Assembly: GCA_021786295.1 (NCBI GenBank)
Contig: JAJYNO010000021.1
Span: 1 to 64,000, forward strand
Reading direction: 5' to 3'
Length of the DNA: 64,000 bases
Origin: a bacterium
GTDB lineage: Bacteria; Elusimicrobiota; Elusimicrobia; Elusimicrobiales; UBA9959
Numbering within the stretch: the stretch's first letter is position 1; every line of letters begins with the position of its first letter. This document shows positions 6,008 through 52,974 of this stretch, piece after piece. The notes beneath the pieces are model-generated. The model saw only the letters and a list, made by a program, of their open reading frames with translations, searched no databases and had not been told where the DNA came from. Position numbers and translations under genes: made by a program.

Positions 6008-7171
6008 TTAAGCTCCCAGCTTGGAGTTGCAGTTGGGGCAGACCGGGACGCCGGGGGGCACCGGGTGCTTGCAGTACGGGCAGACGTTGGTGGACATCTT
6101 TATGCCGCAGTGGCCGCAGAACTTGGCCCCGACCGGCACCTCCATGCCGCAGGAAGGGCAGACGGCGTTGGGAGTGACCAGCGCGGCCCCGCAGGAAGTG
6201 CAGAACTTGAACGTGGACATCGTCTTGTTGCCGCAGACGCCGCAGGTCACCATGCCGTCGGCCGGTCCCGGCAGGGCCTTGGCAGGCTGCACCGGCCCTA
6301 TGGCCGCCATAGCGCCCCCGGCCACCCCGGCGAAGCTGGAGCCGGCCCCCATGCCCATGCCCATGCCGAGACCAGCGCCCATGAAGTTACCGCCGCCCTC
6401 GTTCTTGGCCGCTCCCTCGAGCACGTCGAAGGTGCGCTTCATCCTGTAGTCCTGCTCCCCCATGATGCGGATCTCCGCCTTGTTGGCCATAGCCTGCTTG
6501 AGGTGCTGTACCTCCGGGTCGTCATCCGGGACGTCTATGGAGTTCACGAAGAAATTGGCGATCTCCAGGCCGTACATCGCGAAGTCCGCGCTCAGCTTGT
6601 CCTTGAGCGCCTCCGACATCTCGGTCAGGTGGGCGCTGACGGTCAGTATGGACAGCTTGCGCTCTATCAGCTGTGAGGCGATATAGTCCTTGGTCTTGGT
6701 CAGGATCACGCCCCTGAAGTAATTGGAGATCTCCTCCTTGGAGAGCGTGGCCACCGTGCCGACGAGCTGCACCACCAGTTTTCGCGAATCGTTTACGCGG
6801 AAACCGAACTGCCCGTTGGCGCGTATCGGCAGGAAGACGTTCAGCAGCGGGTCCAGGATCTGCACCGGGCGCGGCGTGCCCCATTTCACGTCCAGCAGCG
6901 TCGCCCTGTCCACGAAATAGACCTCGGCCGGGAACGGCGTGCGGTTGCCGAAAGGGATGTTGACGAAGCTCTTCAGCAGCGGGATGTTGTCGGTCTCCAG
7001 CGTATGCCGGCCCGGGCCCAGCACGTCCAGCGCCTGGCCGTCCTTGTAGAAGATGGCCTCCTGCGTCTGGTTCACTATGACCTGGCTCCCCCAGGAGATC
7101 TGGTCTCCCGGCCACTTCCAGACCAGCACGTCGTTGGGGCCTTCGTACTTTACCACGTCAAAAATAGCCAT
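6008..7171 (-). CDS. SPFH-domain protein with three C-terminal zinc ribbons
   Basis: 387 aa. The first ~240 residues are an SPFH/band-7-like domain of the YdjI / virion-core-protein-like group, lacking an N-terminal membrane anchor. A Gly/Met-rich linker (GAGLGMGMGMGAG) follows, then three zinc ribbons with paired CxxC knuckles: CGVC...CTSC, CPSC...CGHC and CPYC...CPNC. SPFH proteins form membrane-associated oligomeric scaffolds. AAGGAG precedes the ATG. First gene of a two-gene unit with the zinc-ribbon TPR protein. The exact role is unknown; zinc-ribbon decoration suggests protein or membrane targeting. Confidence 0.8.
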   Translation of the reverse strand: MAIFDVVKYEGPNDVLVWKWPGDQISWGSQVIVNQTQEAIFYKDGQALDVLGPGRHTLETDNIPLLKSFVNIPFGNRTPFPAEVYFVDRATLLDVKWGTPRPVQILDPLLNVFLPIRANGQFGFRVNDSRKLVVQLVGTVATLSKEEISNYFRGVILTKTKDYIASQLIERKLSILTVSAHLTEMSEALKDKLSADFAMYGLEIANFFVNSIDVPDDDPEVQHLKQAMANKAEIRIMGEQDYRMKRTFDVLEGAAKNEGGGNFMGAGLGMGMGMGAGSSFAGVAGGAMAAIGPVQPAKALPGPADGMVTCGVCGNKTMSTFKFCTSCGAALVTPNAVCPSCGMEVPVGAKFCGHCGIKMSTNVCPYCKHPVPPGVPVCPNCNSKLGA

Positions 7172-7249
7172 AGATTCTCCTTGGTGCGAAGCACAACGAT
7201 TAATCTAACAATATTGAGGATTTCGGCGCAACCCCCGCCGCACCCGGCT

Positions 7250-7258
7250 TGCTATAAT
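7250..7258 (+). promoter_or_regulatory. Extended -10 promoter of the phosphatase gene
   Basis: TGCTATAAT, an extended -10 with a consensus hexamer at 7253-7258. Only six bases separate it from the ATG at 7265 and there is no ribosome binding site, so transcription would begin at or next to the start codon (a leaderless mRNA). Confidence 0.55.
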
Positions 7259-7264
7259 TGGACT

Positions 7265-8596
7265 ATGCGAATATACTGCTCTCTCGCGGCTGGCCTGCTG
7301 GCCGGCCTCTGCGCCTGCTCGCCGCGGACCGCGCCGGGCTATCTGGCCACCGATACCCCGTACCGCCCCCCCGCCTCCTCCGAGGCCCGGCCGGCCGGGC
7401 TGGAGCCGGTCTTCATAGACCACCTGGGCCGCCACGGCTCCAGGTACTTCACCTCCCCGAAGGACCTGGAGAAGATGGCGGCGACCCTGGAATACGCGCG
7501 CTCCGCGGGAGCGCTGAACCGGCGCGGGAAGACCCTGGAAGCCTCGGTAAGGGAGTTCCTGAAGATTAGCGCTTTCGGCCAGGTCACGCCGCTGGCGGCC
7601 GAGCAGCAGCGGGGCATAGCCCTGCGCATGTACCGCCGCGCCCCAGGGCTGTTCAGGTATCCAGGCGGCAGGAAGGTGCTCGCCTCCGCCACCTACAAGA
7701 AGCGCGCGCAGGACACGCGCGACGCCTTCCTGGCGGAGCTGGCCTCGCTCTCCGGCGCCGACCCGGGGACAGATTTTGAGACGACGGTGAGCACAGGCTG
7801 CCAGCCGCTGAGGTTCTTCGACTGCGACGCGGACTACCGGGCCTACAAGAAGGCCCGTTCCTGGCTGATGACCCCCTATTACCTGTCGCTGGCCTCCCGT
7901 ACCAGGGAGGTTTCGCGCGCGGTGCTGGGCGGGTTCCTCTCCAAGGGCTTCCTGGACGGGCTGGATTCCGGGAAACAAGTCCCGGAAGGGACGTTCTCCT
8001 CCTCCGCGGAGATGGCCGGCGCGCTCTACAAGATCTACGCCATGGAGCAGGAACTGCCTGAGAGGCGCTTCGGCTTCCGGAAGTACTTCGACCGGGCGCA
8101 GCTGGCCTGGTTCGAATACCTGGACGACTACAACGCCTTCTACGGGAAGGGCCCGGGCTACCCCGGCAGCGGCATCACCTTCGCCATGGGACGGCAGCTG
8201 CTGCGCGACTTCCTGGACACGACGGAACGCGCCGCGGAGGACCCGGCCGGCTCGCCGGCGGCCGTGCTGCGCTTCGCCCACGCCGAGACCGTGCTGCCGA
8301 TGGCGGCCCTGATGAGGCTGAACGGAGCCTCGGAACAGGCGGGAGCGTATCCGTTCGAGGGAAGGCGCTGGAAGAGCGCCGAGGTCGCGCCGATGTCCGC
8401 CAACATACAATGGATACTTTTCAGCCGGAAGGACGGCGGGGACCGCGAATTGGAGATACTTCTCAACGAACGGCCGGTCCTGATAGACGCGCCGCTGCCC
8501 CATGACGGCTATTTCTACGACTGGCCGGCGGTCAGGGGATTCTACGAGGGCCTGCTGGGCCGGCTTCAGGCCCAGGCGGCGCCCCCCGACCGCTGA
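7265..8596 (+). CDS. Histidine acid phosphatase (MINPP/phytase-like), lipoprotein
   Basis: 443 aa. The N-terminus is a lipoprotein signal ending LCAC, with Cys18 as the likely lipid site. The branch-2 histidine phosphatase signature RHGSR is at residues 56-60 (His57 nucleophile) and the distal motif is HAET rather than HD, as in multiple inositol polyphosphate phosphatases. The enzyme should hydrolyse phosphomonoesters, possibly inositol phosphates, at the outer or periplasmic surface. The start is taken at the ATG at 7265, where the signal peptide begins; the longer open frame upstream has no start signal. Converges with pyk, two bases apart. Confidence 0.8.
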   Translation: MRIYCSLAAGLLAGLCACSPRTAPGYLATDTPYRPPASSEARPAGLEPVFIDHLGRHGSRYFTSPKDLEKMAATLEYARSAGALNRRGKTLEASVREFLKISAFGQVTPLAAEQQRGIALRMYRRAPGLFRYPGGRKVLASATYKKRAQDTRDAFLAELASLSGADPGTDFETTVSTGCQPLRFFDCDADYRAYKKARSWLMTPYYLSLASRTREVSRAVLGGFLSKGFLDGLDSGKQVPEGTFSSSAEMAGALYKIYAMEQELPERRFGFRKYFDRAQLAWFEYLDDYNAFYGKGPGYPGSGITFAMGRQLLRDFLDTTERAAEDPAGSPAAVLRFAHAETVLPMAALMRLNGASEQAGAYPFEGRRWKSAEVAPMSANIQWILFSRKDGGDRELEILLNERPVLIDAPLPHDGYFYDWPAVRGFYEGLLGRLQAQAAPPDR

Positions 8597-8598
8597 GC

Positions 8599-10119
8599 TC
8601 AGATCTCGTCGTGGAAGGCCTCGTCGCCCACCGTCTCGCAGCGGATCGTGTTGGTCGGGCGCCTCTTGCCGAACGGGCTTGAGCCCATGAACACCAGCTT
8701 GTCCCCGGCGGTTATCGCCCCCTTCTTGCGAAGGCGCTCCATCGCCAGGCGCGCCACCTCGCTGAAGCGGTGCCCCTCCGGGGCCTCTATCAGGCACGGG
8801 ATCACGCCCCAGTTAAGGGCCAGCTGGTGGTAGAGGGTCTCGTTGTGCGTGAAGGCGTAGATCGGCACGCTGGGCCGGTACTTGGAGAGCGAGCGCGCCC
8901 CTATGCCGCTGGCGGTTATCACGCAGATGGCCCCGGCGTTCCAGTCGTGCGCCATCTCCACCACGCTGAAGGCCATGATGTTGGTGATGTTGTCGCGGTC
9001 CACGTAGTCGTGCGTGATGCGCGCCAGCGTGCGGTAGTCGGCGGCGGACTCGGTCCTGTCTATGATGCGGCCCATCATGTTGACCACGCGGGCCGGGTGC
9101 GCGCCCTTGGCGGTCTCGCCCGAGAGCATCACGGCCGAGGTCAGGTCCATCACCGCGTTGGCGGTGTCGGTCACCTCGGCGCGCGTCGGGTAGGGCCGCT
9201 CGGTCATCGACTCCAGCATCTGCGTGGCCACGATGACCGGTTTGCCGGCCAGGTAGCAGCGTTTGACGATGTTCTTCTGCAGGCCGGGCAGTTCCTCTAT
9301 CGGCACCTCTATACCCAGGTCGCCGCGGGCGACCATGATGCCGTCGGAGTCGCGGATGATGTCGTAGATGTTGGCGAGCGCCTGCTTGTCCTCTATCTTG
9401 GCTATCAGCATCACCGGCGAAGCCGGGTCGGTCTCCTTCACCAGCGCCTTCACGTCGGCTATGTCCTTGGCCGTACGCACGAAGGACAGCGCTATGTACT
9501 CGAAGCCGTTCTTCACCGCGAAGCGTATGTCGGCCCTGTCCTTCTCGGACAGGAACGGGATTGGGTAGTCGGCCCCGGGCACGGCCAGGTGGGTCTTTTC
9601 GCTGATGGTCCCGGTGTTGAGCACGCGCACGGTCACGGCGCCGGCCCTGCCCGGGTGCAGCTGCGTCACTTCGGCCTCTATGAAGCCGTCCTGCAGCAGC
9701 ACGCGGGTGCCGGCCTGGCAGAGGCTGCTGATGCGGGGCAGGTTGGTGTAGAAATGGCGCTGCTCCGGCGGCTCCTGCCGCAACTCCCCCGGCTGCTTGT
9801 CGGTGCTCTCTATGTAGAGCGTCTCCCCGGCGGAAAGCTGCACGCCGCCGGAATAGCCGAACATCCGCACCTCCGGCCCCTTGGTGTCCAGCATGACGGC
9901 CAGCGGCACGTCCAGCTCGGCCCTGGCCTCGCGCAGCAGCCGCACCGTCTCCAGGGCGCCCTCGTAGTCGGCGTGCGAGAAGTTTATGCGCGCCACGTCC
10001 ATGCCCTCTCGGATAAGCTCCCGGATCCGGTCCGGGGTGTTGGACGCGGGACCTATGGTGCAGATGATCTTGGTCCTGCGGAAAGCCCTTTTAGTCGCCT
10101 GCGAAGCTGAGAGTATCAT
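8599..10119 (-). CDS. pyk: Pyruvate kinase
   Basis: 506 aa. It converts phosphoenolpyruvate and ADP to pyruvate and ATP in the last step of glycolysis. The N-terminus RRTKIICTIGPAS, the catalytic MVARGDLGIE and the metal/substrate segment VATQMLESM are intact; the C-terminal regulatory domain (about residues 370-490) is present. AAGGAGG is eight bases before the ATG. Single gene, divergent from the barstar leader. The C-terminus ends a few residues after VGDEAFHDEI. Confidence 0.95.
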   Translation of the reverse strand: MILSASQATKRAFRRTKIICTIGPASNTPDRIRELIREGMDVARINFSHADYEGALETVRLLREARAELDVPLAVMLDTKGPEVRMFGYSGGVQLSAGETLYIESTDKQPGELRQEPPEQRHFYTNLPRISSLCQAGTRVLLQDGFIEAEVTQLHPGRAGAVTVRVLNTGTISEKTHLAVPGADYPIPFLSEKDRADIRFAVKNGFEYIALSFVRTAKDIADVKALVKETDPASPVMLIAKIEDKQALANIYDIIRDSDGIMVARGDLGIEVPIEELPGLQKNIVKRCYLAGKPVIVATQMLESMTERPYPTRAEVTDTANAVMDLTSAVMLSGETAKGAHPARVVNMMGRIIDRTESAADYRTLARITHDYVDRDNITNIMAFSVVEMAHDWNAGAICVITASGIGARSLSKYRPSVPIYAFTHNETLYHQLALNWGVIPCLIEAPEGHRFSEVARLAMERLRKKGAITAGDKLVFMGSSPFGKRRPTNTIRCETVGDEAFHDEI

Positions 10120-32691: not shown

Positions 32692-33963
32692 TTACTTCGC
32701 CATGTAGGCGATGAAGTCGTCCCAGTTGGAAGCCTTGGCCCACTGCAGGGCGGCGTACGTGGACGGCGCGGCCTTGCCGGGCAGGTACACGGCTATGCCG
32801 TTGGAGTTGGCGTAGCTCGTGGGACCGTACCAGCCGCCGGAACTGTCGGTGGTGCGGTTCTCGCGGATCAGGGTGTTCTTGATGTAGTCCATCAGGGCCT
32901 GACCCTTGGCCTTCACGTCCGCGTTCTTGGTGTTGGCCACGACCAGCCGGGCGAAGTCGTAGAGGTCCTTGTTCTCCGGGTAGGCGTACTTCTGCGCGGA
33001 GTTCATGGCGGTGGTCGCCGCGGCCTTGTCGCCGGCTTTCATGATCGCGGAAGCGAAGGCGTCCGTGGCGTTCAGGAAACCGGGCAGGTCCGAGGTCTTG
33101 AGGAAGCTCTGCGTGGAGCCGTCGCCGGTGGTCTGGTAGTGGTCCGCGTAGGCGTCGACGGCCTGCCTGGCCACCTGCTCGGGGGTCATGGCGGGGTTGG
33201 CCACCAGCGGTCCCAGGAAGGTGTTGTAGGTGTAGCCGTCGCCCGGCTCGGTCTCCTCGGAGCCGACGATGTACTGCGCGTAGTCCTTCAGCTCGTAGTC
33301 CACCTCGGCCATCTGCATCAGGCAGGCGTCGGAGCCGTACACGTCCACGCCGCCGATCTGCTTAAGCACCTGTCCCAGCTGCGGGGTGTCGATGTGATGG
33401 TTGGTCACCTCGTCGTAAGAGATGCCCTTGGTAGCGGGGGGCAGCCCCTTTATCCAGCCTGCGCCGTGGTTCCAGATGATCAGCATGTAGTGCTTGGCGG
33501 GATAGTTGGCCTTGGCCCAGTCGGCGAAGTCTATCACGCTGTGGTAGTCGCCCATGTCCACGCTCTGCAGCTCCTGCACCACCGGGGAGGCGATGTGGGA
33601 GGGATCGGCGTCCTTCTTCACGAGGTAGCGGCGCACGGTCTTCCAGTCGCCGTCCGAGGTGTCGTAGCCGTTCATGCGGCCCACCTCGGTGACGATGTTG
33701 ACCTTGTCGCTGGAGCCGACCTGCTCCATCTCGTTCATGTCCTTCAGCGCGAACTGCTCAAGGTTGTTCTTGCCGTTCACGAAGACCATTATGGTCCAGT
33801 CCTTCTGCGCGCCTGCGGGTTTTACCGCCGGCGCGGGGACCTTGAGAGCGAGGTCGGAGATCTCGTTCTTAAGGTCGAAGTTGCCATTGTCGAAGTCCAC
33901 CGCGGCCAGGGCTAACTGGGCGCAGCATGACATGGCAAATACAGCTATTGCCAGCTTCTTCAT
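32692..33963 (-). CDS. Clostripain-like secreted protease A (C11 family)
   Basis: 423 aa. Signal peptide about 1-20, then a short propeptide-like segment and the C11 core: WTIMVFVNGKNNL opens the caspase-type fold; the catalytic dyad is His166 in IIWNHGAGW and Cys214 in GSDACLMQM. C11 proteases cleave after Arg or Lys and are often calcium-activated and self-processing. Start is ATG at 33963 with GGAGG six bases before; TATAGT (34019-34024, minus) is a likely -10. It is close to protease B at 40335 and separated from it by five signalling genes on the same strand. Confidence 0.9.
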   Translation of the reverse strand: MKKLAIAVFAMSCCAQLALAAVDFDNGNFDLKNEISDLALKVPAPAVKPAGAQKDWTIMVFVNGKNNLEQFALKDMNEMEQVGSSDKVNIVTEVGRMNGYDTSDGDWKTVRRYLVKKDADPSHIASPVVQELQSVDMGDYHSVIDFADWAKANYPAKHYMLIIWNHGAGWIKGLPPATKGISYDEVTNHHIDTPQLGQVLKQIGGVDVYGSDACLMQMAEVDYELKDYAQYIVGSEETEPGDGYTYNTFLGPLVANPAMTPEQVARQAVDAYADHYQTTGDGSTQSFLKTSDLPGFLNATDAFASAIMKAGDKAAATTAMNSAQKYAYPENKDLYDFARLVVANTKNADVKAKGQALMDYIKNTLIRENRTTDSSGGWYGPTSYANSNGIAVYLPGKAAPSTYAALQWAKASNWDDFIAYMAK

Positions 33964-40334: not shown

Positions 40335-41606
40335 TCAATTCTCGTACCACTTTATGAACTCTTCCCACTGGGAGGCCTTGGCCCACTGCAGGTCGTTATA
40401 GGCGCTCTCGAAGCCGTAGGTAGGCATATAGGCGTCTATGCCGTGGGAGTTGGTATAGCCGCTGCCCACCGGCCTGTTGACGAGCACCAGCGTGTTGCTG
40501 ATGTAGTCCATCAGGGCCTGGGCGGCGGACTTCACGGCCGGGCTCTTCGTGGTCTGGCTCATCAGCGAAGCGAAGTGCCAGATGTCGTGGTTGTCGGCCA
40601 CGGCGTAGCTCTGCGAGTTGTTGATCGCGTTCTTGACCGTGTCCTTGTCTCCGGCCTGCATCATCGCGCTGGCGAAGTTGTTCATCAGCACGGTGAACTG
40701 CGGGATAGCGGCGGACTTCACCAGGCTCTGCGTGGAGCCCTGGTTGCCCTCCTGCTGGTAGTGGTCGGCGTAGGCGTTCACGGCCAGCTCGCCCACCTGC
40801 TCCGGGGTCATGGAGGGGTTGGCCGCCAGGGGCCCCAGGAAGGTGTTGTAGGTGTAGCCGTCGCCGGGCTCGGTCTCTTCGGAGCCCACGATATAGGTCA
40901 CGTAGTCCTTGATCTCGTAGTCCACCTCGGCCATCTGCATCAGGCAGGCGTCGGAGCCGTACACGTCCACGCCGCCGACCTGCTTGAGGATCTGCCCCAT
41001 CTGAGGGGTGTTGATGTGGTTGCCGGTCTCGTCGTCGTAGGAGATGCCCTTGGTGACGCCCTGGGGCATGGACTTGTCCCAGCCGGAACCGTGGTTCCAG
41101 ATGATCAGCATGTAGTGCTTGGCCGGGTAGTTCTGCTTGGCCCAGTTGACGAAGTCGACCACGCTGGTATAGTTGCCCATGTCCACGCTGCCCATGTCCT
41201 GCAGGACCGGGGAGGTGACGGTGTTGGTGTCGTTGTCCTTCTTTATAAGGAAGCGGCGGGTGCCGGTGAAGGGAACATCGCCGTAGCCGGAGACCAGGCC
41301 GGTCTCGGTGACGACGTTGATCCTGCTGGTGGAGCCCACCTGCTCCATCTCGTTCATATCCTTTACCGCGTAAGGGGCCAGGTTGTTCTTGCCGTTGACG
41401 AAGACCATGATGGTCCAGTCCTTGGCGGACCGGGACGCGGCCACGGAGTTCGCATCGGCTTTCACGGGCGCGGGCACATTGACGGCCTGCGCGGCTATTT
41501 CCTGGTTGAGGCTGGTCTTGTTGGGGGAATCAAAAGAGATCTCCGCCGACACCAGGGGGGAAACCATCGCTACTATACCTAACGCTGCAGCTGCTTTCCT
41601 TAACAT
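40335..41606 (-). CDS. Clostripain-like secreted protease B (C11 family)
   Basis: 423 aa, the same length as protease A and clearly its paralogue. Signal peptide ending at about Ala21 (LVSA). Catalytic dyad His172 in IIWNHGSGW and Cys221 in GSDACLMQM. Long identical stretches (NYPAKHYMLIIWNHG, then VGSEETEPGDGYTYNTFLGP) point to a fairly recent duplication, with divergence concentrated in the propeptide and the C-terminal third. ATG at 41606 has GGAGG. Preceded by a near-consensus promoter at 41672-41701. Confidence 0.9.
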   Translation of the reverse strand: MLRKAAAALGIVAMVSPLVSAEISFDSPNKTSLNQEIAAQAVNVPAPVKADANSVAASRSAKDWTIMVFVNGKNNLAPYAVKDMNEMEQVGSTSRINVVTETGLVSGYGDVPFTGTRRFLIKKDNDTNTVTSPVLQDMGSVDMGNYTSVVDFVNWAKQNYPAKHYMLIIWNHGSGWDKSMPQGVTKGISYDDETGNHINTPQMGQILKQVGGVDVYGSDACLMQMAEVDYEIKDYVTYIVGSEETEPGDGYTYNTFLGPLAANPSMTPEQVGELAVNAYADHYQQEGNQGSTQSLVKSAAIPQFTVLMNNFASAMMQAGDKDTVKNAINNSQSYAVADNHDIWHFASLMSQTTKSPAVKSAAQALMDYISNTLVLVNRPVGSGYTNSHGIDAYMPTYGFESAYNDLQWAKASQWEEFIKWYEN

Positions 41607-41836: not shown

Positions 41837-43333
41837 TCAGACCAGCAGCAGGACGAGCAGGAAGGCGGAGACGGCCAGCAGGACGCCTGCGGCCAGCAGA
41901 CGGCCGTAGAACGGGAAGAGGGCCCGGACGGCGTAGACCGGGGCCGAAGCGCGCAGCACCGTTCGCTCGTCCAAGGCCGTGACGGCCGTCACGCGGCCCC
42001 ACGGGTCTATCACCCCGGAGATGCCGTTGTTGGCCGCGCGCGCCACCGAGCGGCGGTTCTCCACGGCGCGGAACACGCTGGCGATGAAATGCTGGTACGG
42101 GGCGGCCGTGTCCAGGTACCAGCCGTCGTTGGTGATGTTGACGAACAGGTCCGCCCCGGCGAGGGTGTCCCCCGAGAACAGGTACGGGAAGATGGACTCG
42201 TAGCAGAGCGTAGCTCCTATCTTATAGCCACGGAAAACCATCAGCGGCTGGTCCGACGCGCCGGGCTCGAACTCCCCCAGCTCCCCCACCGGTTTTATGT
42301 ACCTGCCCAGCAGACCGCGCAGCGGCACGTACTCGCCGAAAGGCACCAGTTGCCGCTTGTCGTACGAAGCCGTTATGGTGCCGGAGCTGTCCAGCAAAAA
42401 AGCCGAAACATGCTTCCCCTCTCCGCGCGAGACGGAACCGACGAAGCTGCCCTCCACCCCGGAGGAGGAGGCCGCTTTCCTGAGCCAGCCGCGGCAGGCG
42501 GAGTCGTTTATCCAGCAAGGCAGCGCGTTCTCCGGCCAGACCGCCAGGTCGGCGCCTTTCGCCTGCGCGGCCTGCAAGGCCATCAGGGCCAGTATCTTCC
42601 CGGCCTGGGTCTCGTCCCATTTGGCGTACTGGTCTATGGACGGCTGCAGCAGCGCCAAGTGCAGCACCCTTACCGGCGCCGGAACGTTCGCGAGCTCGTA
42701 ACGGCCGAAGGCCCAGAGCCCGGCCAGCACCGCCGCCGCCGGCAGCATGCGCAGCGCCCGGCCAGGCCAGGAAAGCTCGCGCGCCAGCAGCGAACCGGCC
42801 AGCGCCCCACAGAAGGCCAGGGCCGCGCTCAGGCCGTACACGCCGGTGACCGAGGCTATCTGTATCAGCGGGATATAATGCCACTGCGTGTAGCCCAGCA
42901 TGAACCACGGGAACCACACCGCCTTGGCGGCCAGCCACACCTTGCCGTGCTCCAGCAGGAACCAGCCCAGCGCGAAGAAGTATGGCCAGACCGCGGCGCC
43001 CGCCTTCTTCAGGTAATGGCCGTAAAGCGAGATCAGGACGAACTCAGAGGACATCAGCAGCGCCAGCAGCACCAGCCCCAGCGCCGAGACGAAAGGACCC
43101 ACGCCGCCGGCGCGCATGGTGGGATAGACCCAGTACAGGATGCCAGCGTAGAACAGGAAGCCGGCGGCCAGCCCCCCCGCCGCCGCGTCCCGGCGCCTCT
43201 TGGCCTTGAGCAGGAAATAGCACAGCGGCGCCAGCGCCACCCACGCCAGCCACCCCTGCCCGAACTTCGGGTAGCTCAGCACCAGCAACAGCGCCGTCAG
43301 CGCCGGCCACGCGATCTGTGGTATTTTCTTCAT
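41837..43333 (-). CDS. lnt: Apolipoprotein N-acyltransferase
   Basis: 498 aa. Membrane domain (six or more helices in the first ~210 residues) and a periplasmic nitrilase-like domain. The catalytic Glu-Lys-Cys triad is read as Glu in AVWPENAL, Lys in SYDKRQLVPFGEY and Cys in TLCYESIFP. It adds the third acyl chain to lipoproteins in the inner membrane, supporting a diderm envelope and the several lipoproteins encoded nearby. A final hydrophobic helix closes the protein. Upstream lies the structured element at 43382-43513; no ribosome binding site was seen. Confidence 0.93.
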   Translation of the reverse strand: MKKIPQIAWPALTALLLVLSYPKFGQGWLAWVALAPLCYFLLKAKRRRDAAAGGLAAGFLFYAGILYWVYPTMRAGGVGPFVSALGLVLLALLMSSEFVLISLYGHYLKKAGAAVWPYFFALGWFLLEHGKVWLAAKAVWFPWFMLGYTQWHYIPLIQIASVTGVYGLSAALAFCGALAGSLLARELSWPGRALRMLPAAAVLAGLWAFGRYELANVPAPVRVLHLALLQPSIDQYAKWDETQAGKILALMALQAAQAKGADLAVWPENALPCWINDSACRGWLRKAASSSGVEGSFVGSVSRGEGKHVSAFLLDSSGTITASYDKRQLVPFGEYVPLRGLLGRYIKPVGELGEFEPGASDQPLMVFRGYKIGATLCYESIFPYLFSGDTLAGADLFVNITNDGWYLDTAAPYQHFIASVFRAVENRRSVARAANNGISGVIDPWGRVTAVTALDERTVLRASAPVYAVRALFPFYGRLLAAGVLLAVSAFLLVLLLV

Positions 43334-43381: not shown

Positions 43382-43513
43382 GGGGATGCGGGGGTATGGG
43401 TTCCGAAGGCTGTCACGGAGGCCCGAGCTTACGTAAGCGCGAGGGCCGAGTGACAAGGGGCGGCAACGGTGTTGCCGACCCCGTGCCTGAGGGGCCCATA
43501 CCCCCGCGTCCCC
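43382..43513. repeat. Three-stem structured element A (secA-lnt intergenic)
   Basis: A 19-bp outer stem with one mismatch (43382-43400 with 43495-43513) encloses two inner hairpins. Hairpin 1: TGTCAC/GTGACA (43411-43416 with 43450-43455), GGCCC/GGGCC (43420-43424 with 43443-43447) and a GCTTACGTAAGC tip (43427-43438). Hairpin 2: GGGGCGGCAAC with GTTGCCGACCCC (43457-43467 with 43471-43482), closed by a GGT triloop with one bulged A. Fills nearly the whole gap between the secA stop and the lnt start. See element B at 50925-51059 for a second copy of the architecture. Confidence 0.7.
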
Positions 43514-43521
43514 GAACACCG

Positions 43522-46146
<2,625 letters not shown>

Positions 46147-50451: not shown

Positions 50452-50913
50452 CTACCGGCCGGCGCCGCGCGTGCGCCTGAGGGCCTCGTAGAGCGCGACC
50501 CCGGCGGACGTGGAAAGGTTGAGCGAGCGGACCCGGTCGGACCACATCGGTATGCGGTACAGCCTGTCCGCGTACTTCTCGTAGATCTCTTCGGGGAAAC
50601 CGGCCGTTTCCGCCCCGAAGACAAGGCAGGAGTCCTCCCGGTACGGCGCCTCCCAGTAGCTCTTTCCCCCGCGGGTCGAGAAGAAGACGAGCGAAGGGTC
50701 CGGCGGCAGCGACGCCAGGAACGCCTCGAAGTCCTTGTGCACCGAGTACTTCAGGAACTGCCAGTAGTCCAGCCCCGAACGCCTTATCTCCTTGTCGCTC
50801 AGGCTGAACCCCATCTTCCCCACGAACGCCAGCTCCGTGCCGGTGGCCACGCAGGTGCGCCCGATGTTCCCCGCGTTCCACGGGATATCCGGATTAATAA
50901 GCACAATTTTCAT
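50452..50913 (-). CDS. trmL: tRNA (cytidine/uridine-34 2'-O)-methyltransferase
   Basis: 153 aa, a minimal SPOUT enzyme. The N-terminal MKIVLINPDIPWNAGNIGRT matches TrmL; the trefoil-knot region includes LVFGAETAGFPEEI and RIPMWSDRVRSLNLSTSAGVALYE. It methylates the wobble ribose of leucine tRNAs. ATG at 50913 with AGGGGTGA. It is isolated from the glycan genes by function and lies directly beside structured element B. Confidence 0.92.
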   Translation of the reverse strand: MKIVLINPDIPWNAGNIGRTCVATGTELAFVGKMGFSLSDKEIRRSGLDYWQFLKYSVHKDFEAFLASLPPDPSLVFFSTRGGKSYWEAPYREDSCLVFGAETAGFPEEIYEKYADRLYRIPMWSDRVRSLNLSTSAGVALYEALRRTRGAGR

Positions 50914-50924
50914 GTTCACCCCTC

Positions 50925-51059
50925 GCCGGGCTGCCGACGCGGCAGGATAAGCAAAACCGTCGTTGAGCCCGCCGCTTGCGTCGCGCGGCGGGCGAATACC
51001 GGGTGAGGCCACGGTGTGGCCGAACGCGTTTTGCGTTCCTGCCGGGGCGGAAGCCCGGC
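50925..51059. repeat. Three-stem structured element B (asnB-trmL intergenic)
   Basis: Outer arms pair in blocks: GCCGGGCT/AGCCCGGC (50925-50932 with 51052-51059), GGCAGGA/TCCTGCC (50941-50947 with 51037-51043) and GCAAAAC/GTTTTGC (50951-50957 with 51028-51034). Inside are hairpin 1 GCCCGCCG/CGGCGGGC (50967-50974 with 50986-50993) and hairpin 2 GGCCAC/GTGGCC (51007-51012 with 51016-51021), again with a GGT triloop and followed by GA, as in element A. Shared bases also include GTGA before hairpin 2. Confidence 0.7.
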
Positions 51060-51066
51060 ACGCGCG

Positions 51067-52974
51067 CTACAGCCTGAAATCGTCGGCGTACTGCCGGTGC
51101 CAGAGCTCGAGCATCAGCAGCGCCCACAGCTTGTAGCCGTGGTCCGCGCGCCCCTGCTGGTGCTCGTCCCACAGCCTGTACACCGCCTCGGGCCTGAAAT
51201 AGCCGCGCCCGAGCGCCTTCTGCGACAGGCACGTCCCGGCCCAGTAGTCCTTCAGCTCGCCGCGGAACCAGATGCCGAGCGGTATTCCGAAGCCCATCTT
51301 CCCGCGCCGGTAGATGTCAGGGGGCAGCATGCCGCGGAAGGTCTCCTTGAGTATCCACTTCGTCCGGTTGAAGCCCTTCAGTTTCATGCCGCCCGGCAGC
51401 GCGAAGGCGAATTCCAGCACCTTGTGGTCCAGGAACGGCGAGCGCGTCTCCAGGGAATTGGCCATCGAGGCTATGTCCATCTTGGTCATCAGGCATTCCG
51501 GAAGGTAGGAACGCAGGTCCACGTAGCTCATGCGGTTCAGGAGGTCGTCGTCCGGGACCAGCGAGAAGAGCCTGGCTAGGTAGCGCTCCGCGTAGCCTTT
51601 GTCAGCCCCCAGCCTGTTGGCGAAGGCGTCAGAATAGAACGCGTCCGTCTCACCGGGACCGAAGAAAGAGACGGTGGACAGATACCGGCGCGGCAGCGTC
51701 TCCATGACCGAGAACTTCAGGAACTTCTCCAGCCGCCAGAAGAAATTGAACGGTGCCGTCTTCGGCGCCGCGGCTATCGCCTTCAGCGCGGCCAGTTTGG
51801 CGGAGCGCGGCGCCCACGAGACCAGGCGCTCCGCCTTCATCCCGACGTAGCGCAGGTAGCCGCCGAAGGCCTCGTCGCCGCCGTCGCCGTTGAGCGCCAC
51901 CGTGACCGCCTTGCGCGTCTCGCGCGAGACGAAGTACGAAGGCAGCGCGCTGGAGTCGGCGTAGGGCTCCCCGTAATGCCAGGCCAGTTTCTCCAGCACG
52001 TCGGCCATGCGCGCCTCCACCGTGAACTCGGTGTGCGCGGTGCCGTACATCTTCGCGACCTGCCTGGCGTAGGGAAGCTCCGAGAAGCGCTCCTCCCTGA
52101 AGCCTATCGAGAAGGTCTTCACCGGACGCTCGGAATGCCTCGCCATCAGCGCCACGACCACGGAGGAATCTATGCCGCCTGACAGGAAGGCTCCCAGCGG
52201 AACCTCCGACATCAGCCTGACCTTCACGGCCTCCGACAGCTCGGCCAGCAGCCGTTCCTTGAGCTCCGGCAGCGGCACGTACGACAGTTTCTCCTCTCCG
52301 AGCGGCAGGTCCCAGTAGCGCTCCTCGGAGAACTGGCCGTCCTCGAAGACCAGCACCGAGGCCGGCTGCAGCTTCCTCACCCCCCTGAATATGCTCAGCG
52401 GGCTCGGGATGTACTGCAGCGCCAGGTAGGCGTCTATCGCCGCCGGGTCCACCTCGCGCTTGACGTCGGGGCGGGTCAGCAGGCAGCGGAGTTCGGAGGC
52501 GAAGACGAAACTGCCGGGAGTGCGGACGTAGAAGAGCGGTTTCTTGCCCAGCCGGTCGCGCGCCAGCACCAGGCGCTTCTTTTTGCCGTCCCAGATCGCG
52601 ACGGCGAACATGCCGCGCAGCTCCTTCGGGAAGTCGGCCCCCTTCTCCTCGTAGAGGTGCAGGATGACCTCGGTGTCGCTTCTGGTCTTGAACTTATGGC
52701 CGCGGGAGAGCAGCCCCTCGCGCAGCTCGAGGTAGTTGTAGATCTCGCCGTTGAAGACTATCCAGGCGGTCCCGTCCTCGCTGGAGATCGGCTGGTGGCC
52801 GGTGGAAAGGTCTATGATCGAGAGCCGCCTCATAGCCAGGCCGACGTTCCGGTCCTGGAAATAGCCCTCGTCGTCCGGGCCGCGGTGGACGATCAGGTCG
52901 TTCATGGCCTTCAGGTCCCCGCGCTCCACGGCGAGGCCGGAACCGTAGTTGTAAAGTCCGCATATTCCGCACAT
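51067..52974 (-). CDS. asnB: Asparagine synthase (glutamine-hydrolysing)
   Basis: 635 aa. Cys2 nucleophile at MCGICGLYNYG, class-II glutaminase domain to about residue 190, then the synthetase domain with PPi-loop LSGGIDSSVV and GDGGDEAFGGY. The length and the position among glycan genes resemble exopolysaccharide/PEP-CTERM-associated amidotransferases, which amidate surface sugars, but free asparagine synthesis is equally possible. GGGAG precedes the ATG. Start of a minus-strand segment leading to trmL through element B. Confidence 0.9.
   Translation of the reverse strand: MCGICGLYNYGSGLAVERGDLKAMNDLIVHRGPDDEGYFQDRNVGLAMRRLSIIDLSTGHQPISSEDGTAWIVFNGEIYNYLELREGLLSRGHKFKTRSDTEVILHLYEEKGADFPKELRGMFAVAIWDGKKKRLVLARDRLGKKPLFYVRTPGSFVFASELRCLLTRPDVKREVDPAAIDAYLALQYIPSPLSIFRGVRKLQPASVLVFEDGQFSEERYWDLPLGEEKLSYVPLPELKERLLAELSEAVKVRLMSEVPLGAFLSGGIDSSVVVALMARHSERPVKTFSIGFREERFSELPYARQVAKMYGTAHTEFTVEARMADVLEKLAWHYGEPYADSSALPSYFVSRETRKAVTVALNGDGGDEAFGGYLRYVGMKAERLVSWAPRSAKLAALKAIAAAPKTAPFNFFWRLEKFLKFSVMETLPRRYLSTVSFFGPGETDAFYSDAFANRLGADKGYAERYLARLFSLVPDDDLLNRMSYVDLRSYLPECLMTKMDIASMANSLETRSPFLDHKVLEFAFALPGGMKLKGFNRTKWILKETFRGMLPPDIYRRGKMGFGIPLGIWFRGELKDYWAGTCLSQKALGRGYFRPEAVYRLWDEHQQGRADHGYKLWALLMLELWHRQYADDFRL

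What the first reader, a model, noticed from the sequence alone, without database searches (positions are those of the whole stretch)
43382..43513. Intergenic element A: outer stem enclosing two hairpins, filling the secA-lnt gap
A 19-bp outer stem (one mismatch) closes two internal hairpins, one with a palindromic GCTTACGTAAGC tip and one with a GGT triloop. This is far more ordered than a terminator: 132 bases form a near-complete three-way junction. It lies between co-oriented genes (secA stop, lnt start). It could be a structured RNA, a protein-binding DNA site or a mobile palindromic element. If lnt is leaderless, the element would be in the secA 3' UTR rather than the lnt leader.
Basis: seen in the sequence. 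Interest (0 to 1): 0.72.

Follow-up and report, generated by a model that had tools for sequence, protein, structure and literature searches.

The report
Mobile three-way-junction hairpin repeat in Elusimicrobiota
The fold between secA and lnt is one copy of a previously unlisted family of small repeats, scattered in up to about 100 copies per genome through one family of Elusimicrobiota, that come and go at the ends of genes and keep a conserved two-hairpin tip while the long stem below it changes almost completely yet stays paired.

Summary
In detail: 132 bases fold as an outer stem (23 pairs plus an inner 4) closing two hairpins, far beyond shuffled sequence (z = -10.3 on the + strand). It is not unique. 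It belongs to a dispersed family: 28 covariance-model hits in this genome, present in all 26 genomes examined in its genus (9 to 100 or more hits each), with 27 of 29 positive genomes of the phylum in one family, and no match in Rfam, phages, plasmids or E. coli. Copies lie between genes, usually just after a stop codon and never in divergent gaps. Orthologous empty sites lack both stem arms, so whole units are gained or lost. Covariation is very strong (92% of cells paired; 43 of 52 pairs with double changes), also among eight orthologous copies next to rnpB. The two-hairpin tip is a module: tips 97-99% identical sit on unrelated, well-paired stems. G-T outnumbers A-C in the stem, so the + strand seems to be the one that folds. 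No target duplication, U-tract, RAYT link or autonomous partner was found. Best reading: a new lineage-specific, structure-defined, non-autonomous mobile palindrome, resembling ERIC or REPIN but a member of neither. How it moves and what it does are inferred only.

The parts
43382..43513 (+). element A, whole fold (the finding)
   Evidence: R1 140.3 bits
43382..43404 (+). outer stem P1, 5' arm (sequence specific to this copy)
43491..43513 (+). outer stem P1, 3' arm
43407..43410 (+). inner part of P1, 5' side (pairs with 43485-43488; GA/GA internal loop outside it)
43485..43488 (+). inner part of P1, 3' side
43411..43455 (+). hairpin 1, with GGA/GA internal loop and tip GCTTACGTAAGC (43427-43438)
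43457..43482 (+). hairpin 2, with invariant ACGGTGT tip (GGT triloop 43468-43470)
50929..51055 (+). second copy in the window (element B), between genes at 50452-50919 (-) and 51067-52974 (-)
   Evidence: empty site in G009
43522..46146 (-). secA, upstream gene; its stop lies 8 nt from the element
41837..43333 (-). lnt, downstream gene

Best explanation
Element A is one copy of a non-autonomous mobile repeat defined more by fold than by sequence: a near end-to-end palindrome of about 130-190 bp whose + strand folds into a three-way junction (long outer stem, two hairpins with conserved tips). Shown: dispersed copies, gain or loss as whole units at orthologous sites, placement at gene 3' ends, and maintenance of pairing by compensatory change. 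Inferred: (1) a trans-acting enzyme, not identified, recognises the single-stranded + strand fold through the conserved tips and moves it without a target duplication; (2) the near-identical tips are spread and swapped between copies by movement or gene conversion, while each outer stem drifts under a pairing constraint only; (3) copies survive where they do no harm, after stop codons, and may affect the 3' ends of neighbouring transcripts.
For: 28 hits in own genome; 26/26 genomes of the genus, 9-100 hits each. Empty sites without either stem arm: winB vs G009, L013 vs G001, L018 vs G001 and G009, L009 pair vs G009, L010 vs G008, rnpB site in G022, G008, G010, G002, G005. 70 copies: 42 and 15 in co-oriented gaps (two orientations), 6 convergent, 0 divergent; G018 contig C11: 14 sites, 7 convergent, 7 co-oriented, 0 divergent, against 61 divergent of 184 gaps of 100 nt or more. 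Near-identical 172-nt units at three sites of one genome. Covariation: 92.2% of cells paired, 43/52 pairs with double changes, 0/500 shuffles. Isolated stem mismatches in copies: 59 G-T vs 18 A-C; 38 vs 10 copies, p = 6e-5. Cores 97-99% identical with outer arms 22-39% identical.
Against: No transposase or autonomous relative was found: no copy lies near the RAYT genes tested or, as a rule, near ORF6N genes. No target-site duplication (3.6% vs 4.3% shuffled). At the rnpB 3' end the element persists in many species with compensatory changes, which a purely selfish, decaying copy would not explain well. Polarity of gain and loss was not settled with a tree.
Confidence: 0.55

Rival explanations
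1. A genuine non-coding RNA or 3' end element of the host, duplicated to many loci and kept at each by selection on the fold, for example to protect, process or insulate transcripts.
For: Compensatory changes among eight orthologous copies at the rnpB 3' end (11 of 20 stem pairs with double changes, 0/500 shuffles); orthologous or repeated presence in the secA-lnt gap; strict placement after gene ends; G-T over A-C asymmetry.
Against: The better-folding strand is antisense to the upstream gene in most copies; orientation can flip at one locus (L049 in secA-lnt; L010 site in G009); many orthologous sites are empty; no U-tract or promoter-like flank stands out.
Confidence: 0.27
2. Neutral palindrome upkeep: template switching between the arms copies mutations from one arm to the other, so the stems stay paired without selection.
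For: Among nine independent pairs of related copies (87-97% identical), 25 changed stem pairs are coordinated Watson-Crick double changes and only 8 are single steps to or from G-T or A-C.
Against: G-T over A-C asymmetry and persistent asymmetric internal loops (GGA/GA, TTA/GTT) are not expected; some double changes are common variants of hairpin 2 that look exchanged between copies rather than newly mutated.
Confidence: 0.1
3. The tip is the mobile part and it inserts into the loop of pre-existing long hairpins such as terminators.
For: Nearly identical tips on unrelated, well-paired stems.
Against: Empty sites show neither arm; G000 and G009 share the rnpB-site flanks but carry different stems.
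Confidence: 0.04
4. It is an intrinsic transcription terminator of secA.
For: Lies 8 nt after the secA stop; many copies lie after stops.
Against: No T run after the stem on either strand beyond background; ordinary U-tract terminators exist separately in a relative and beside copies such as L012.
Confidence: 0.04

Closest known systems
ERIC (enterobacterial repetitive intergenic consensus) and other bacterial MITEs
   Same: About 130 bp, intergenic, palindromic end to end, tens to hundreds of copies, lineage-restricted, can lie at 3' ends of genes (PMC10969869, PMC2267715).
   Different: ERIC is predicted as one long stem-loop (PMC2267715); here there is a three-way junction. Copies here share the tips rather than the terminal repeats, and no target duplication is seen. 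No sequence match in E. coli genomes.
REP / REPIN / BIME (GTAG- and CGTC-tagged repeats)
   Same: Extragenic palindromes, frequent inverted head-to-head pairs, possible single-strand recognition of a fold.
   Different: REPs are 20-40 bp with an unpaired GTAG or CGTC tag (PMC3733652) and GTAG types go with RAYT genes; here about 130 bp and no RAYT link. The RAYTs here have other hairpins beside them.
BOX elements of Streptococcus pneumoniae
   Same: Modular, structured, dispersed, intergenic repeats.
   Different: Different phylum; not compared by sequence here. A recalled resemblance only.

Membership tests
REP/REPIN | 20-40 bp palindrome with a GTAG or CGTC tag at one end | tested here: not met
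   Unit is about 130-190 bp. Frequent words of the 5' arm do not include such a tag; definition from PMC3733652.
REP/REPIN | association with a RAYT (Y1) transposase gene | tested here: not met
   0 hits of R1 in 30 loci around PF01797 genes of the genus.
MITE | target-site duplication | tested here: not met
   Boundary repeats of 4 nt or more: 3.6% vs 4.3% in shuffled pairs, 84 copies.
MITE | conserved terminal inverted repeats shared by copies | tested here: not met
   Outer 19-nt arms average 52% identity among 70 copies, core 76%; near-identical cores with 22-39% arms.
MITE | parent autonomous element with a transposase | tested here: inconclusive
   Only RAYT and ORF6N neighbourhoods were examined.
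MITE (broad sense: small non-autonomous mobile repeat) | dispersed copies with presence/absence at orthologous sites | tested here: met
ERIC | sequence similarity to ERIC copies | tested here: not met
   No blastn match of element A in 5,426 E. coli genomes at E 1e-3.
Rfam RNA families (4227) | match at the gathering score | tested here: not met
   the only gathering match is RNase P RNA beside copy L016.
intrinsic terminator | T run directly after the hairpin | tested here: not met
   TTTTT in 6 of 84 3' flanks on the + strand, AAAAA in 11 of 84 5' flanks for the other strand.

The most novel reading that the evidence does not exclude
A mobile palindrome whose unit of spread is the folded tip: when the tip is copied to a new place it acquires a new, perfectly complementary stem there, for example because hairpin-primed synthesis makes an inverted copy of one flank, so that each copy carries its own stem from the moment of insertion. 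Sharp, symmetric breaks of identity in both arms (L031/L027, L193/L194) fit this, but symmetric breaks also follow from any model in which both stems stay paired.
Probability: 0.12. Interest if true: 0.85.

Novelty: new variant of a known kind. Interest (0 to 1): 0.6.

Why it matters
Small dispersed palindromes shape many bacterial genomes, but how they spread and why their folds persist is mostly unknown. This family gives an unusually clean case: hundreds of copies in a genus with many sequenced species, empty sites, conserved tips on freely varying but paired stems, and a strand asymmetry pointing to a single-stranded form. It makes two questions testable by comparative genomics: whether stem pairing is kept by selection or by arm-to-arm copying, and which host enzyme recognises the tips. 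It also warns that strong covariation alone does not prove a host non-coding RNA.

Tried and rejected
Rfam at gathering and at E 10: only chance miRNA-type hits far below threshold. RAYT/REP link: PF01797 genes occur in 22 of 26 genomes but with other hairpins. ORF6N partner: suggested by a four-gene array in G226, not general. Spread by phages or plasmids: no match; one exact-motif scan of IMG/VR found nothing, which is a narrow test. Terminator: no T run. Tip inserting into existing hairpins: empty sites lack arms. Literature search found no description of this family in Elusimicrobiota; the library covers open-licence papers only.

Full report
Observation. The + strand minimum energy is -104.1 kcal/mol against a shuffled mean of -62.1 (z -10.3); the - strand reaches -89.2 (z -6.7). 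The outer stem is 23 pairs plus an inner 4, with a GA/GA internal loop between. Hairpin 1 carries the GCTTACGTAAGC tip and hairpin 2 an ACGGTGT tip with a GGT triloop. The gap lies between secA and lnt, both on the - strand.

Family. BLAST finds 18 places in the same genome; all 24 same-genus relatives and none of 16 genomes of another family of the order match. A covariance model, R1, was built from 14 copies of this genome. It finds 28 copies here and 9 to 100 in each of 26 genomes of the genus. Only up to 131 candidates per genome were scored, so high counts are lower bounds. Over the phylum 29 of 247 genomes match, 27 of them in the same family (five genera of it) and one each in two other families of the class. 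By contig names and lengths the relatives are Elusimicrobia MAGs (for example G008 corresponds to GWD2_63_28). There is no Rfam, phage, plasmid or E. coli match.

Structure conservation. In 70 distinct copies 92.2% of stem cells form standard pairs; 43 of 52 pairs show double changes, 712 cells in all, and none of 500 shuffles reaches these values. That alignment was fitted to R1's structure, so it leans towards it. Sliding the partner by one to three columns drops pairing to about 40%. The MAFFT alignment of 14 BLAST-found copies, not fitted to a model, gives the same direction (77.6% vs 63.4% shuffled). The tips and the GGA/GA internal loop are nearly invariant.

Strand. All 70 distinct copies fold better as the + strand. 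To avoid the bias of RNA scoring, the outer arms were also aligned with symmetric DNA scores: isolated mismatches are 59 G-T and 18 A-C on the + strand, 38 versus 10 copies, p = 6e-5. Copies share ancestry, so the p value is optimistic. This points to a single-stranded + strand form, RNA or DNA. It is antisense to the upstream gene in most copies.

Placement. Of 70 copies with predicted neighbours, none lies in a divergent gap, 6 lie in convergent gaps, and 42 versus 15 of the co-oriented ones are antisense to their genes, typically 5-50 nt after a stop codon. On a 735-kb contig of G018, 14 sites are 7 convergent and 7 co-oriented, while 61 of 184 gaps of at least 100 nt are divergent; by binomial reasoning the absence of divergent sites has a chance of about 0.0035. 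Gene predictions come from a simple codon model trained on the window. Inverted pairs, always head to head (- then +), are common. In G000 a copy lies directly beyond the 3' end of RNase P RNA.

Gain and loss. Orthologous empty sites are clear. At element B, G009 has overlapping genes and no trace of arms. At L013, G001 has 5 nt where G000 has 158. At the rnpB site five species have 16-26 nt where others have about 160-235. Which state is ancestral at each site was not resolved with a tree. At one site different species can carry copies of opposite orientation or other large hairpins.

Modularity. Three sites in G012 share a 172-nt unit including its stem. Other copies share tips at 97-99% while their outer arms are 22-39% identical and still well paired, even between species. 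At orthologous sites of G000 and G009, flanks above 90% identical enclose elements with different stems and tip subtypes. Among eight rnpB-site copies the 20-bp stem has 11 pairs with double changes; their arms were cut by eye, and G000 and G009 are the least certain orthologues. Tip exchange by gene conversion, plus drift of the stem under a pairing constraint, is the simplest account; it is inference. In nine pairs of related copies coordinated double changes outnumber single steps 25 to 8, which also allows arm-to-arm copying; some of these are exchanges of common hairpin 2 variants.

Mechanism not found. No target duplication or T run appears at the borders of 84 copies. RAYT genes exist in the genus but have their own hairpins. 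An ORF6N array with one copy after each gene in G226 proved local. Ordinary terminators are present separately.

Verdict. A real, ordered and mobile family, new to the sources searched. It works most like ERIC or REPIN repeats, but fails their tested defining features, so it is filed as a new variant of dispersed bacterial palindromes. A host function for some copies, such as the one beyond rnpB, is quite possible.

Noticed in passing
L019 (about 975-1142), L023 (about 1014-1180), L012 flank: Variant of the element with an extra domain between the hairpins (about 168 nt shared, 90% identical between L019 and L023).
   Followed up: partly
L158 and L209 (G001): A second family of large hairpins with the inner motif GGGAACCGCGCAACGGTTCCC occupies gaps where G000 has the element.
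   Followed up: no
L052, L053, L065, L069 after the secA stop: A larger hairpin family (CGCTCATAAGCG ... AATCGCTCACAGGGAGC, tip CACACAGTG) fills the secA-lnt gap in several relatives.
   Followed up: no
L304 (G226:C66) 6028-9368: Four ORF6N genes beside rpsJ, with one copy of the element 49 nt after the stop of three of them and one between rpsJ and the first: a tandem array of about 850-bp units.
   Followed up: partly
L234, L237, L238, L242, L254 flanks: RAYT-like Y1 transposase genes flanked by REP-like hairpins such as GGGGACAGGCTACTTTTT and GGTGCCAGGCACCTTTT.
   Followed up: no
L055 and L060, start of lnt: Long GGTAACCGGT-type inverted repeats run into the predicted start of the lnt coding region.
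   Followed up: no
window 32692-33963 and 40335-41567: Two paralogous genes (the 40335 one looks like a secreted clostripain-type peptidase) with 300-nt stretches 88% identical.
   Followed up: no
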